NCBI GenBank assembly: GCA_905182415.1
Contig: CAJJBK010000057.1
Coordinates: forward strand, 1-43,209
DNA: 43,209 nt
DNA from: an uncultured Woeseiaceae bacterium
GTDB lineage: Bacteria; Pseudomonadota; Gammaproteobacteria; Steroidobacterales; Woeseiaceae
Direction: 5' to 3'
The stretch's first letter is position 1. Every line of letters begins with the position of its first letter. Below, piece by piece: positions 29,557-33,909 of this stretch. The notes under the pieces were generated by a model. That model was not told where the DNA came from and made no database searches. It worked only from the letters and a program-made list of their open reading frames with translations. Position numbers and translations under genes: made by a program.

Positions 29557-30579
29557 ATGAATTCATCCAGGCAATCAGACTACGTAATCTCACTTGATGC
29601 AATGAGTGGGGATAATGGTCCAAAAGTTGTTGTGCGTGCAGCTAAATTGAGCCTCAGTAAAAATCCTAACCTCAGAATTATGCTGATAGGTAAAGAAACT
29701 ATTCTCATTAGCTTGGTGGCTAAAATTATAGGTATTGATGAGCGGGTTTCAATTCATGATGCCACTGAAGTCGTAAGTATGTCCGAATCACCAACGGAAG
29801 CGGTGAGAAAGAAAAAAAACTCTTCTATGCGAGTAGCCATCGATAAAGTTAAAGATGGAAGTGCTCATGCATGCGTAAGTGCTGGAAATACTGGGGCGTT
29901 AATGGCGATAGCTAAGTTTGTACTGAAAATGCTTCCAGGAATAAATCGTCCCGCAATTATGGCTGAATTACCCGTCGCCGGTGGAACTGTTCATATGCTT
30001 GATTTAGGTGCAAATACATCAAGTGATCCAGAGCAATTATTTCAATTCGCACTGATGGGCTCAATTGTAGCGGGAGATATTTGTGACCTTGAAAATCCAA
30101 GGGTTTCATTACTTAATATTGGTGTCGAGGACTCTAAAGGTAATGATAACGTTAAAAATGCAGCTAGTTTGTTAGTACAGAGTGGCTTGAACTATATCGG
30201 CTTTATTGAAGGTAATGAGATCTTTTCTGGCAAGACTGATGTAGTGGTCACTGATGGATTTACGGGTAATGTTGCATTAAAAACAATCGAAGGCACAGTG
30301 GGGTTCGTTATTAGCTCTTTACGTGATGCATTTTCGAAAAATATATTTACAAAATTTCAAGCTTTATTGTCAAGTTCTGTTTTGTCAAAACTTAGAAAGA
30401 GAATGGATTCAAGAAAATACAATGGCGCATCATTGGTGGGATTGAATGGTATAGTGATAAAGAGTCATGGAAGTGCTGATGCCTATTCTTTTCATTGTGC
30501 AATTGAGACGGCTTTAATTGAAGTAAAAAATCAGGTGCCAGACCAAATTAGAAAATTACTGGAGCGAGAATCAGGATGA
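29557..30579 (+). CDS. plsX: phosphate acyltransferase PlsX
   Basis: PlsX converts acyl-ACP and phosphate to acyl-phosphate, the acyl donor for PlsY in phospholipid synthesis, and sits peripherally on the membrane. Diagnostic blocks are SLDAMSGDNGPKVVVRAA (13-30), CVSAGNTGALMAIAKFVL, MLDLGANTSSDPEQLFQFA and VVTDGFTGNVALKTIEGT. At 340 residues it has the normal length. Its last four bases overlap the fabH start (ATGA), showing translational coupling. Confidence 0.97.
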   Translation: MNSSRQSDYVISLDAMSGDNGPKVVVRAAKLSLSKNPNLRIMLIGKETILISLVAKIIGIDERVSIHDATEVVSMSESPTEAVRKKKNSSMRVAIDKVKDGSAHACVSAGNTGALMAIAKFVLKMLPGINRPAIMAELPVAGGTVHMLDLGANTSSDPEQLFQFALMGSIVAGDICDLENPRVSLLNIGVEDSKGNDNVKNAASLLVQSGLNYIGFIEGNEIFSGKTDVVVTDGFTGNVALKTIEGTVGFVISSLRDAFSKNIFTKFQALLSSSVLSKLRKRMDSRKYNGASLVGLNGIVIKSHGSADAYSFHCAIETALIEVKNQVPDQIRKLLERESG

Positions 30580-31544
30580 TTTATTCTAGGATAGAAGGAA
30601 CTGGCCGTTATTTGCCATCTAAAGTGATGACAAATTTTGATCTAGAAAAAATAGTTGATACTAGCGACGAATGGATTAGAACAAGAACTGGTGTTGAAAG
30701 AAGGCATATTGCTGCGGATGATCAAGCCACATCGGATATAGGTTTTGAAGCAGCCAAAGAAGCCATAAAAAATGCGGGTATTGATAAGGAAGACATAGAT
30801 CTTATTGTGGTTGGTACCACGACCCCAGATTATGTTTTTCCTAATGTCGGAACTTTAATTCAAGATCGACTCGGTATTCATGGTTGCCCGGCGTTCAGTG
30901 TCGAGGCGGCATGCTCTGGATTCGTCTATGCATTGTCTGTAGCAGATAAGTTCATTAAGACAGGAGGAGCTAAATGCGCCTTAGTCATTGGGGCAGAGGT
31001 AATGACAAGATTGATTGATTGGGGCGATCGAAATACTTGTGTGTTATTTGGGGATGGTGCAGGTGCTGTAATTTTAAAACCTTCAAGTGAGGCAGGGATA
31101 TTGGATTGTAACTTAGGCGCTGATGGTAAATATAAAGATTTATTATTATATCCGGCAGGTCCATCAAAGAATTTTCATAAAATGGGAACCGGTGAAATTG
31201 GTCTTGAAATGAGTGGAAATGATGTATTCAGGGTAGCGGTAAAAACACTAGGTAATGTTGCCGAAGAAGCTCTAATTGCGAATAATATAGATAAGCAGGA
31301 ATTAGACTGGTTGGTACCCCATCAAGCAAATTTAAGAATAATACAAGCCACTGCAAAACGACTAGATTTGCCAATTGAAAAAGTTATTCTCACGGTTCAA
31401 GATCATGGGAATACTTCATCAGCTTCAATCCCTATGGCGCTTGATGTGGGCATTCGAGATGGTCGAATTCAACGTGGTCAATTGATTTTAATGGAGGCAT
31501 TTGGCGGTGGATTTACCTGGGGAACCGTTTTAATGCGTTATTGA
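30576..31544 (+). CDS. fabH: 3-oxoacyl-ACP synthase III
   Basis: FabH starts fatty acid synthesis by condensing acetyl-CoA with malonyl-ACP. The Cys-His-Asn triad is visible: C113 in AACSGFVYAL, H249 in PHQANLRI and N279 in DHGNTSSASIP. The 322-residue length is typical. It overlaps plsX by four bases. The usual next gene, fabD, is absent; an L,D-transpeptidase gene follows 13 bp downstream instead. Confidence 0.97.
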   Translation: MIYSRIEGTGRYLPSKVMTNFDLEKIVDTSDEWIRTRTGVERRHIAADDQATSDIGFEAAKEAIKNAGIDKEDIDLIVVGTTTPDYVFPNVGTLIQDRLGIHGCPAFSVEAACSGFVYALSVADKFIKTGGAKCALVIGAEVMTRLIDWGDRNTCVLFGDGAGAVILKPSSEAGILDCNLGADGKYKDLLLYPAGPSKNFHKMGTGEIGLEMSGNDVFRVAVKTLGNVAEEALIANNIDKQELDWLVPHQANLRIIQATAKRLDLPIEKVILTVQDHGNTSSASIPMALDVGIRDGRIQRGQLILMEAFGGGFTWGTVLMRY

Positions 31545-31557
31545 CAGTAAGACTTTA

Positions 31558-32538
31558 ATGTCAAAAGATAAAAAACATAAAAATTCAACGTATTGTTTGC
31601 TGCTATGTTTGTTTGTATTTAATCTTTCGGATGCTGAAATTTATGAACTACCTCATAACGACAATAATATTATTGGTAATATCTCTGAAGTAATTGCATC
31701 CCATGAAGACACATTACTTGATATCGCTCAACGTCATGGACTGGGTTTCGAAGAAATTAAGCGCGCCAACCCAAATATAGACCTATGGATTCCTGGGGAA
31801 GGCACGAAAGTTATATTACCAAAAAAATTTATATTACCCGATGCACCAAGAAGTGGTTTGGTATTAAATATAGCTGAATATAGGATGTATTATTATCCAG
31901 AGACGGTCAGAGGTCAGCCAGAGATAGTGATCACTTACCCTATGAGTATTGGTCGTGTTGATTGGGAGACACCCCTAGGGAAAACAAAAGTAATCTCTAA
32001 GAAAGAGAATCCATCTTGGTATCCTCCTGCTTCTATTAGAGCAGAGAGAGCGATGGAAGGAGAGTTCTTGCCTAATATAATACCGCCCGGACCTGATAAT
32101 CCATTAGGAGATTTTGCTATACGTCTAGATATTCCTGGGTATTTGATTCATGGCACAAATAAACCTAATGGAATTGGAATGCGAGTTACCCATGGTTGCA
32201 TCAGAATGCTTCCTCAAAATATTGAAGAACTTTATTCAATGATGTCATTAAATGATGATGTCTATATAGTTAATCAGCCCATTAAACTAGGCTGGAATTC
32301 TGATGAATTATTTATAGAGGCTCATGAGTTTCTATTAGACAATTCAATTGATTATGAGTTACATGATAGAAGCATGAGCCAAAAAAAAGCTAAGAGCTTA
32401 AGCTACATCTTTTCAGAGCTGACTGAACGTTATATAAAAATTACCGATAAGAAGAAAGCAAAATTAGACTGGAGGGTAGCAGAGCTGGCCTCGATTCGTG
32501 CTGACGGAATACCGATTTTTGTAGGTGCTAAAAATTAA
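31558..32538 (+). CDS. L,D-transpeptidase (ErfK/YbiS type) with LysM domain
   Basis: This periplasmic YkuD-fold enzyme either attaches Lpp-type lipoproteins to peptidoglycan or forms 3-3 crosslinks. A signal peptide spans about residues 1-26 (cleavage near SDA-E). A LysM-like segment is at about 43-89. The YkuD domain (about 98-235) has H198 and the catalytic motif THGCIRM with H212, C214 and R216. At 326 residues it is close to E. coli ErfK and YbiS. It follows fabH closely and converges on two Lpp-like lipoprotein genes ending in lysine, which supports a role in lipoprotein anchoring. Confidence 0.92.
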   Translation: MSKDKKHKNSTYCLLLCLFVFNLSDAEIYELPHNDNNIIGNISEVIASHEDTLLDIAQRHGLGFEEIKRANPNIDLWIPGEGTKVILPKKFILPDAPRSGLVLNIAEYRMYYYPETVRGQPEIVITYPMSIGRVDWETPLGKTKVISKKENPSWYPPASIRAERAMEGEFLPNIIPPGPDNPLGDFAIRLDIPGYLIHGTNKPNGIGMRVTHGCIRMLPQNIEELYSMMSLNDDVYIVNQPIKLGWNSDELFIEAHEFLLDNSIDYELHDRSMSQKKAKSLSYIFSELTERYIKITDKKKAKLDWRVAELASIRADGIPIFVGAKN

Positions 32539-32577
32539 AACTATAGGCTTTGAAATTTGTAGAAGTGAGCAGACTCT

Positions 32578-32841
32578 TTATTTTTCTTGAGCTTTTTGAA
32601 ACATCCTTTCCATGCGCTCCACAATTTCGTTATAGTCATAATTAATATTCTTTACAGAATTTTGTGCAGCTTCAGCAATCATTTCTGCATTTTCAGCGCG
32701 TGTATTAGCAGCTTCAGCTTCATTTAAAGCATGATTGGCTGTCGCCTGAGCATCATCAACCATTTCTTGGCTGACGACCGCGCAGCCGGAAAGAAAGATG
32801 ATTGCAAGACATATACAGAGTTTTATATTTTGCGTGAACAT
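32578..32841 (-). CDS. Lpp/OprI-like outer-membrane lipoprotein, copy B
   Basis: This 87-residue lipoprotein has lipobox LSGC (C20), leaving a 68-residue mature chain that is one long Ala/Glu-rich helix with coiled-coil spacing. It ends in RMERMFQKAQEK. The size, lipobox, Ala-rich helix and terminal lysine resemble E. coli Lpp and Pseudomonas OprI, whose terminal lysine is joined to peptidoglycan by an L,D-transpeptidase. It is a clear duplicate of the neighbouring copy: the signal peptides and last 12 residues are nearly identical. A good ribosome site (GAGGGA) lies upstream. Its stop is 39 bp from the L,D-transpeptidase gene. Confidence 0.85.
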   Translation of the reverse strand: MFTQNIKLCICLAIIFLSGCAVVSQEMVDDAQATANHALNEAEAANTRAENAEMIAEAAQNSVKNINYDYNEIVERMERMFQKAQEK

Positions 32842-32886
32842 TTATTAGTTTCCCTCTATGGTTTTCTTAGTAACTAAAATAGACCA

Positions 32887-33147
32887 TTATTTTTCTTGAG
32901 CTTTTTGAAACATTCTTTCCATACGTTCCATTATTCCATTGTATTCATCATTTGCGTCTTTCGCAGCTTTTTTTGCTGCTTCAGCAGCCATTTCAGCATT
33001 TTCAGCACGTATATTAGCAGTTTCAGCTGCAATTAATGCACGATTTGCAGTTGCTTGCGCTCTATCAGCCATTTCTTGACTTGGCATGCAGCCGGAGAGT
33101 GAGATGATTAAAAATAACGTGAAAAGTTTTATATTTTTTGTGAACAT
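32887..33147 (-). CDS. Lpp/OprI-like outer-membrane lipoprotein, copy A
   Basis: This 86-residue lipoprotein has lipobox SLSGC (C20). The 67-residue mature chain carries many closely spaced Ala residues (AQATANRALIAAETANIRAE) and ends in RMERMFQKAQEK with a terminal lysine. It matches copy B in its first 11 residues apart from one, and in its last 12 residues exactly. The residues differ most in the centre. Ribosome site AAAGG lies about 10 bases before the ATG. It is divergent from lexA. Structural attachment of outer membrane to peptidoglycan is inferred from its resemblance to Lpp/OprI. Confidence 0.85.
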   Translation of the reverse strand: MFTKNIKLFTLFLIISLSGCMPSQEMADRAQATANRALIAAETANIRAENAEMAAEAAKKAAKDANDEYNGIMERMERMFQKAQEK

Positions 33148-33232
33148 TTTTATCAGCGCCTTTTATTTTTTTTGTATCTAGAAACATATCATTTATAACT
33201 TAATATTTATATTAAATAACTTAAAAATTTTA

Positions 33233-33285
33233 TTTACAAAAATATTATACTGTATATAATTACAGTACTGTATAAAAGGACAGTA
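33233..33285 (+). promoter_or_regulatory. lexA promoter with two LexA (SOS) boxes
   Basis: Two perfect CTGT-N8-ACAG boxes lie at 33250-33265 and 33268-33283; each is flanked by TA, and the flanks share 33266-33267. A consensus -10 TATAAT (33255-33260) lies inside the first box, with TTTACA (33233-33238) as -35 at 16-base spacing. The second box overlaps the AAAGGA ribosome site (33275-33280). LexA would therefore block both polymerase binding and early elongation at its own gene. Confidence 0.93.
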
Positions 33286-33291
33286 AATATT

Positions 33292-33909
33292 ATGAAGCAA
33301 TTAACACCTCGTCAACATCAAATATTAGAAATGATTAGAGACTTTATATCCGAGTATGGGATACCACCAACACGGATGGAAATTGCAAATGATTTAGGGT
33401 TTAAATCTGCAAATGCAGCCGAAGAGCATTTAAGGTCTTTGCAAAAAAAAGGAGTAATAGAACTATTACCCGGATCATCAAGGGGAATCAGATTAAAAGA
33501 CTCACTAAGAGAACAGATCGGATTGCCATTGGTTGGCAGAGTTGCGGCAGGTAATCCAATACTAGCCGAGGAAAATATTGAAGCTCATTATAAAATTGAT
33601 CCTAAGATATTTCATCCAAAGCCACATTATCTCCTCAGAGTAGAGGGTATGAGTATGATGGATATAGGAATCTTTGATAATGACTTAGTTGCCGTTCATA
33701 GAACCTCTGAGATTAGAAGTAGGCAAGTAGTTGTTGCAAGAATCAATGATGAGGTAACTGTAAAGCGATACAGTCAAAAAGGCTCTGTTGTTTGGTTGCA
33801 TCCTGAAAATAAAGATTTTTCACCGATAAAAGTCGATTTAGCAACGCAAGAAATGGTAATTGAAGGAGTCGTTGTCGGCGTTATACGTGGTGATATGTCT
33901 ATTCACTAA
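33292..33909 (+). CDS. lexA: SOS repressor LexA
   Basis: LexA represses SOS genes until RecA filaments trigger its self-cleavage. The N-terminal winged-helix domain (about 1-70) begins [19 protein letters not shown] and has the recognition region [11 protein letters not shown]. The cleavage site is A86-G87 in GRVAAGNP. The Ser-Lys dyad is S121 in [10 protein letters not shown] and K158 in VTVKRY, all with the same spacing as E. coli. At 205 residues it has the standard length. The tandem operator shows autoregulation. Its stop codon overlaps that of gspF on the opposite strand. Confidence 0.98.

What the first reader, a model, noticed from the sequence alone, without database searches (positions are those of the whole stretch)
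31558..33147. L,D-transpeptidase facing a tandem pair of Lpp/OprI-like lipoproteins
The enzyme has LysM plus a YkuD HGCIR active site. The two convergent lipoproteins have LSGC lipoboxes, single Ala-rich helices and identical ends RMERMFQKAQEK with terminal lysine. In E. coli, enzymes of this type attach the Lpp C-terminal lysine to peptidoglycan, but lpp lies elsewhere. Here enzyme and likely substrates sit side by side, and the substrate is duplicated with divergent centres, suggesting a self-contained outer-membrane tethering module with possible mixed trimers.
Basis: partly seen in the sequence, partly recalled or inferred. Interest (0 to 1): 0.57.

Follow-up and report, generated by a model that had tools for sequence, protein, structure and literature searches.

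The report
Ordinary Lpp anchor locus, substrate duplicated
A marine bacterium keeps the enzyme that probably ties its outer membrane to its cell wall beside two copies of the lipoprotein it probably ties down, a gene order that is common in related bacteria, with only the doubling of the lipoprotein looking local.

Summary
An L,D-transpeptidase (YkuD, HGCIR) at 31558-32538 (+) faces two Lpp/OprI lipoprotein genes (-), both with LSGC lipoboxes, Ala cores and terminal Lys. Most likely this is the ordinary Braun-lipoprotein anchoring pair. The gene order is common: LDT and Lpp are convergent neighbours in 27 of 31 genomes with an Lpp hit (window's included) and in at least 47 of 80 named loci. 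What looks local is the tandem Lpp (two genomes of one genus), a two-heptad shortening, and absence of a Cys-Cys pair found in 34 of 57 relatives. The locus holds the genome's only detected Lpps and its only YkuD protein with the catalytic Arg, so 'self-contained' is fair. Six of the nine genomes of the genus, all incomplete, show no YkuD and no convincing Lpp. That co-loss suggests enzyme and substrate work together and are dispensable there. Tandem lpp genes are already known (Salmonella lppA/lppB). Mixed trimers are possible but untested.

The parts
31558..32538 (+). L,D-transpeptidase (LDT1), relative of LdtA/B/C/E; N-terminal signal (by eye, no call), LysM-like stretch, YkuD domain with THGCIR, C-terminal helical/strand tail
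   Evidence: AlphaFold2 model mean pLDDT 86.1; best Foldseek match 4lzh, a Klebsiella L,D-transpeptidase, E 1.7e-26
32578..32841 (-). Lpp/OprI-like lipoprotein copy A (87 aa; 68 aa from the lipobox Cys)
32887..33147 (-). Lpp/OprI-like lipoprotein copy B (86 aa; 67 aa from the lipobox Cys), 45 bp upstream of copy A on the same strand
30576..31544 (+). fabH, upstream neighbour
   Evidence: plsX, fabH or lexA matches found in 27 of 80 named loci
33292..33909 (+). lexA, neighbour on the far side
33250..33283 (+). two CTGT-N8-ACAG sites (LexA-box-like; the consensus is recalled) between copy B and lexA
   Evidence: 3 matches in the window against 0.28 expected

Best explanation
This is a Braun-lipoprotein anchoring locus. 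The two lipoproteins are exported, lipidated at the LSGC cysteine and carried to the outer membrane (inferred from family knowledge). There they form Ala-zipper coiled coils with their C-terminal Lys at the peptidoglycan. LDT1 acylates its Cys214 with a tetrapeptide stem, releases D-Ala4, and transfers the tripeptide to the side-chain amine of the terminal Lys of either copy, as reported for E. coli LdtA/B/C with Lpp and for LdtPae2 with OprI. The shared tail means one enzyme should accept both copies. The tandem pair arose in this genus from the single Lpp seen in relatives, and both copies have stayed under purifying selection. Shown: the parts, gene order, uniqueness in the genome, conservation and joint absence in sister genomes. 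Inferred: the chemistry, localisation and trimer state.
For: LDT1 is 33-39% identical to E. coli LdtA/B/C/E; PMC10434034 (abstract and passages) reports LdtPae2 as the only OprI-anchoring enzyme of P. aeruginosa PA14 and puts it in a lineage with those E. coli enzymes. LDT-Lpp convergence in 27 of 31 genomes with an Lpp hit (hand tally, window genome included) and 47 of 80 named loci, with 7 more of the 80 having an Lpp downstream but no LDT ORF closed by my rule. plsX-fabH-LDT-Lpp-lexA order recurs; the LDT1 tree agrees with vertical descent. LDT1 is the only YkuD with the catalytic Arg in the genome; the other has DGCLA. Co-loss: 6 of the 9 genus genomes have no YkuD even at E<=10, five of these no Lpp hit at E<=0.001 and G005 one 20-bit hit. 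In G008 fabH and lexA are 101 bp apart with nothing between; in G003 another gene lies between them. The second YkuD is absent from between its neighbours in G001 and G003. Copies A and B: dN 0.19, dS 0.91; A-A orthologs dS 0.25, B-B 0.46.
Against: Adjacency does not prove the substrate: E. coli lpp's own convergent neighbour LdtE is reported as a 3-3 cross-linker, with LdtA/B/C as anchorers (PMC12729407 passages), and PMC10434034 says sequence lineages do not separate the two activities. LDT1 is far below the cut-offs of the NCBIfam equivalog models. The LysM match is below cut-off. The co-loss genomes are 52-86% complete. The LDT1 site is spanned from fabH to lexA in only two of them (G003, G008); in G001 and G004 only the lexA side is seen; and there enzyme and substrate are lost as one block. 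23 of 80 named loci showed no Lpp within 2 kb by my rule, though the rule missed at least two (L112, L118) visible. The rules that picked Lpp rows asked for a basic C-terminal residue, so Lys conservation among relatives is partly by selection. No wet evidence exists.
Confidence: 0.8

Rival explanations
1. LDT1 is mainly a 3-3 cross-linker, like E. coli LdtE, and its place beside lpp is inherited gene order rather than a functional pair; Lpp then works unanchored or is barely anchored.
For: E. coli ldtE-lpp has the same convergent order and LdtE is reported as a cross-linker (PMC12729407 passages). Anchoring and cross-linking enzymes are not separable by lineage (PMC10434034 passages).
Against: LDT1 is the only YkuD with the catalytic Arg in the genome, so any Lpp anchoring by this enzyme class needs it; both copies in both tandem-bearing genomes keep the terminal Lys. 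Enzyme and substrate are absent together in sister genomes. A dual activity is possible and would not contradict the best explanation.
Confidence: 0.15
2. Only one Lpp copy is the anchored tether; the other is specialised (free form, other stage or condition) or is starting to decay.
For: The copies differ at 27 of 86 aligned residues, and in G002 the copy A tail reads RMEGMFQKSQEK rather than RMERMFQKAQEK.
Against: Both copies keep lipobox, Ala core and terminal Lys, and dN/dS between G000 and G002 is about 0.3 for copy A and 0.12 for copy B.
Confidence: 0.12
3. The pair is an assembly artefact or chance Ala-rich ORFs.
For: Tandem repeats can be misassembled; in G007 the contigs break between LDT1 and lexA.
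Against: The copies differ at 24% of nucleotides and are found in a second genome, G002; both pass the curated Lpp cut-off.
Confidence: 0.01

Closest known systems
P. aeruginosa LdtPae2 and OprI
   Same: Single anchoring L,D-transpeptidase and an Lpp homologue with a basic C-terminal end (PMC10434034 abstract and passages). That the two genes are neighbours there is my recollection, not tested here.
   Different: Three LDTs with separate roles are reported there. Here two Lpp copies and a single Arg-type YkuD.
E. coli lpp-ldtE gene pair with LdtA/B/C as anchoring enzymes
   Same: Convergent lpp and YkuD gene, 63 bp apart; LDT1 33-39% identical to LdtA/B/C/E.
   Different: E. coli splits anchoring and cross-linking over five LDTs (PMC12729407 passages); ldtA, ldtB, ldtC, ldtD and dpaA lie far from lpp.
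Salmonella Typhimurium lppA/lppB
   Same: Two functional lpp genes in tandem, 82 bp apart (PMC5103298 and PMC7969528 passages); here 45 bp apart.
   Different: Different lineage, independent duplication (inference).
PDB 9tyw and 4lzh L,D-transpeptidases
   Same: Best sequence matches in PDB (E 1.6e-78 and 4.6e-44); 4lzh is also the best fold match.
   Different: The calls do not state which reaction these proteins catalyse, nor the source organism of 9tyw.

Membership tests
YkuD L,D-transpeptidase of the LdtA/B/C/E - LdtPae2 lineage | YkuD domain over curated cut-off | tested here: met
   74.9 bits against 23.4
YkuD L,D-transpeptidase of the LdtA/B/C/E - LdtPae2 lineage | Catalytic (S/T)xGCh(R/N) motif with Cys and Arg | tested here: met
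   THGCIR; C214 and R216 invariant in the 23 sequences of A1, window included
YkuD L,D-transpeptidase of the LdtA/B/C/E - LdtPae2 lineage | N-terminal LysM | tested here: inconclusive
   18.3 bits against cut-off 20.9; 12 of 23 members of A1 at E<=0.01
YkuD L,D-transpeptidase of the LdtA/B/C/E - LdtPae2 lineage | NCBIfam PRK10190, LdtE or PRK10260 equivalog score | tested here: not met
   183.7, 183.6 and 157.4 bits, below cut-offs 517, 480 and 583: a relative, not an equivalog of these enzymes
YkuD L,D-transpeptidase of the LdtA/B/C/E - LdtPae2 lineage | Lipoprotein-anchoring activity | not testable with these tools
   needs muropeptide analysis
Lpp/OprI alanine-zipper lipoprotein | NF040598 curated cut-off 43 bits | tested here: met
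   44.5 and 43.2 bits; in the six-frame genome search copy B scores 42.1, just below
Lpp/OprI alanine-zipper lipoprotein | Lipobox, Ala-filled heptad core, C-terminal Lys | tested here: met
   LSGC; a/d core 90% (A) and 85% (B) Ala or hydrophobic; ends ...QEK
Lpp/OprI alanine-zipper lipoprotein | Trimer and covalent link to peptidoglycan | not testable with these tools
   no multimer prediction or chemistry available
DpaA (YafK) Lpp-releasing amidase, considered for the second YkuD at G000:C2 | DpaA-type Met133 in place of the LD-carboxypeptidase Trp | tested here: not met
   Trp at that place; best PDB matches are 7o21, 4xzz and 6xj6; PMC10653827 (passages) names 7O21 as Bd1075, 4XZZ as Csd6 and 6XJ6 as Pgp2, all LD-carboxypeptidases

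The most novel reading that the evidence does not exclude
In this genus the usual single, Cys-Cys-bearing Lpp was replaced by two shorter Cys-Cys-free paralogs that assemble into mixed trimers, served by one all-purpose L,D-transpeptidase; sister species then discarded the whole covalent tether, along with the companion YkuD enzyme, and rely on Pal/OmpA-type contacts alone.
Probability: 0.12. Interest if true: 0.45.

Novelty: new member of a known kind. Interest (0 to 1): 0.2.

Why it matters
It is a compact natural case in which one transpeptidase and two lipoproteins appear to make up the whole Lpp-type tether. Close relatives that apparently lost all of it offer a comparison for asking what the tether is for. 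Otherwise it fits known biology, and it shows that LDT-Lpp adjacency is a common gammaproteobacterial gene order rather than a peculiarity.

Tried and rejected
Considered and rejected: (1) That the gene order is special: against it stand. (2) That the identical tails reflect recent gene conversion: the last 12 codons differ at 2 synonymous sites, and copies A and B are further apart (dS 0.91) than orthologs between genomes (0.25, 0.46), so a conserved tail plus selection suffices; conversion of the tail alone is not excluded. (3) That the second YkuD enzyme is a DpaA-type releasing amidase: like DpaA it has Ala where transpeptidases have Arg and blastp between the two is weak (22% identity, E 9e-5), but it carries the carboxypeptidase Trp and matches Bd1075/Csd6/Pgp2. 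(4) Rfam RNA elements: none at gathering score in 31300-33500. (5) Promoters and terminators: 14 promoter-like sites against 8.9 expected and 1 terminator-like against 1.3, so uninformative. (6) Papers: a search for PA2854 with oprI and one for ynhG, lpp and pykF found 0 papers each. Broader searches held 358, 69, 441 and 12 papers, of which I saw only the 12, 12, 12 and 10 listed; none of those listed was by title about LDT-Lpp gene order, Cys-Cys-bearing Lpp or tether loss in Woeseiaceae. This is not proof that nothing is in print.

The 40-genome sample and the 80-locus sample overlap (for example G018/L089 and G016/L090 share contig lengths), and the 80 loci are the best of 583 confirmed matches to the LDT alignment, so they are neither independent nor random.

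Full report
What is there. LDT1 (31558-32538, +) has a YkuD domain, a LysM-like stretch below Pfam's cut-off and the motif THGCIR. Its AlphaFold2 model has mean pLDDT 86.1, and the best fold match is a Klebsiella L,D-transpeptidase, 4lzh. Copy A (32578-32841, -) and copy B (32887-33147, -) both pass the NCBIfam Lpp/OprI cut-off. Their a/d heptad cores are nearly the same. The locus sits between plsX-fabH and lexA.

Where it comes from. The window lies in a 1.82-Mb, 99.4%-complete genome. Its family appears to be Woeseiaceae: genomes G018 and G016, placed in the same family, have contigs of the same lengths as records titled Woeseiaceae and Woeseia (taxonomy). In the LDT1 tree the window and G002 group with L089 and L090 (titled Woeseiaceae and Woeseia) and L093 at 100% support.

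The arrangement is common. I tallied by hand. Of 40 genomes, the window's included, 31 have an Lpp hit at E<=0.001; in 27 of those an LDT match is convergent with it, at most about 1.2 kb from match to match. The four without are G005, G012, G030 and G035. The hits in G005, G030 and G035 are under 25 bits (cut-off 43), and the G012 contig ends 374 bases beyond its Lpp, too soon to hold the LDT. Among 80 named loci picked by LDT similarity, 47 have an Lpp convergent within 2 kb (median 73 bp), 23 have none by my rule, and 10 were not scored. Seven of those 10 do have an Lpp downstream. Of the 23, L092 and L137 have an Lpp 3.4 and 2.7 kb away, and L112 and L118 have one in place that the rule missed. 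Matches to plsX, fabH or lexA turned up in 27 of the 80 loci, most in the order plsX-fabH-LDT-Lpp-lexA; the loci reach only 4 kb on each side at most.

What looks local. None of the 47 scored loci has a second Lpp. Tandem copies were seen only in the window genome and in G002, of the same genus; in G007 the contigs break between LDT1 and lexA, so it cannot be judged. Divergence between copies (dS 0.91) exceeds that between orthologs in G000 and G002 (0.25 and 0.46), so the duplication is older than that split, and dN is well below dS. Compared with relatives both copies show a 14-column gap, two heptads, and lack a Cys-Cys pair. That pair is present in 34 of 57 named relatives' Lpps, its second Cys lying 17 residues before the terminal Lys in 31 of the 34. 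The RMF tail is shared by nearly all rows of the alignments, so the identical ends are no special sign. The terminal Lys of those rows is partly a result of how I picked them: the scripts asked for a basic last or last-but-one residue or a Lys.

Does the enzyme act on these lipoproteins? Four lines say probably. First, the lineage: in P. aeruginosa LdtPae2, put in one lineage with E. coli LdtA/B/C/E, is the only OprI-anchoring enzyme (PMC10434034 abstract and passages). Second, uniqueness: the genome has two YkuD proteins, and the other, on contig 2, reads DGCLA, has the carboxypeptidase Trp, and matches Bd1075, Csd6 and Pgp2 best. Third, the recurrent neighbourhood. Fourth, co-loss: six of the nine genus genomes show no YkuD even at E<=10 and no Lpp over cut-off (G005 has one 20-bit hit).

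The co-loss in detail. G008 has fabH and lexA 101 bp apart with nothing between. G003 carries a 667-aa gene, oxidoreductase-like by eye, between fabH and lexA. G001 and G004 have a similar gene beside lexA, but fabH was not found in them and the contigs end nearby, so their sites are not spanned. The second YkuD gene is missing from between its neighbours in G001 and G003, the only genomes of the six where both neighbours were found. A four-gene tree puts G008 with the window group (93% support) and G001, G003, G004 apart, which suggests two losses of locus 1; G001 and G004 entered it with LexA and GspF only. OmpA-type domains remain in 8 of 9 genomes. Caveats: these six genomes are 52-86% complete, and at locus 1 the genes are adjacent, so their joint loss there may be one event.

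Limits. No call shows anchoring, trimer state or expression. Adjacency alone cannot tell an anchoring enzyme from a cross-linker, as E. coli ldtE shows. Mixed trimers are compatible with the near-identical cores but unproven. The verdict is a new member of a known kind, with a modestly interesting pattern of duplication and loss around it.

Noticed in passing
L089-L168 (named relatives), Lpp next to LDT: 34 of 57 Lpps carry a Cys-Cys pair; in 31 of the 34 its second Cys lies 17 residues before the C-terminal Lys, at a heptad core position. It could lock the trimer by disulfides; the window pair lacks it.
   Followed up: partly
L089-L168, mature Lpp lengths: Lengths step by heptads: 26 of 57 are 3 mod 7 (59, 66, 73, 80, 101); after thinning 19 of 40, chi-square p about 1e-6, not corrected for relatedness. 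The window copies (67, 68) do not fit. Lpp length may track periplasm width.
   Followed up: partly
G000:C2:94480-95382 (L086:4481-5383): Second YkuD enzyme (300 aa, DGCLA, carboxypeptidase-like) between a DsbA-like gene and an acyl-CoA-synthetase-like gene (both labels by eye); absent from that site in G001 and G003.
   Followed up: yes
L080:3553-5556, L081, L082: A 667-aa gene, oxidoreductase-like by eye, sits between fabH and lexA in G003, and a similar one beside lexA in G001 and G004, where relatives have the LDT-Lpp block.
   Followed up: no
window 33250-33283: Two LexA-box-like sites lie between copy B and lexA; a weak promoter-like match on the minus strand (33256-33227) overlaps the first, so SOS control of the lipoproteins is conceivable.
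   Followed up: no
window 33758-33773: A third CTGT-N8-ACAG match lies inside lexA; probably chance.
   Followed up: no
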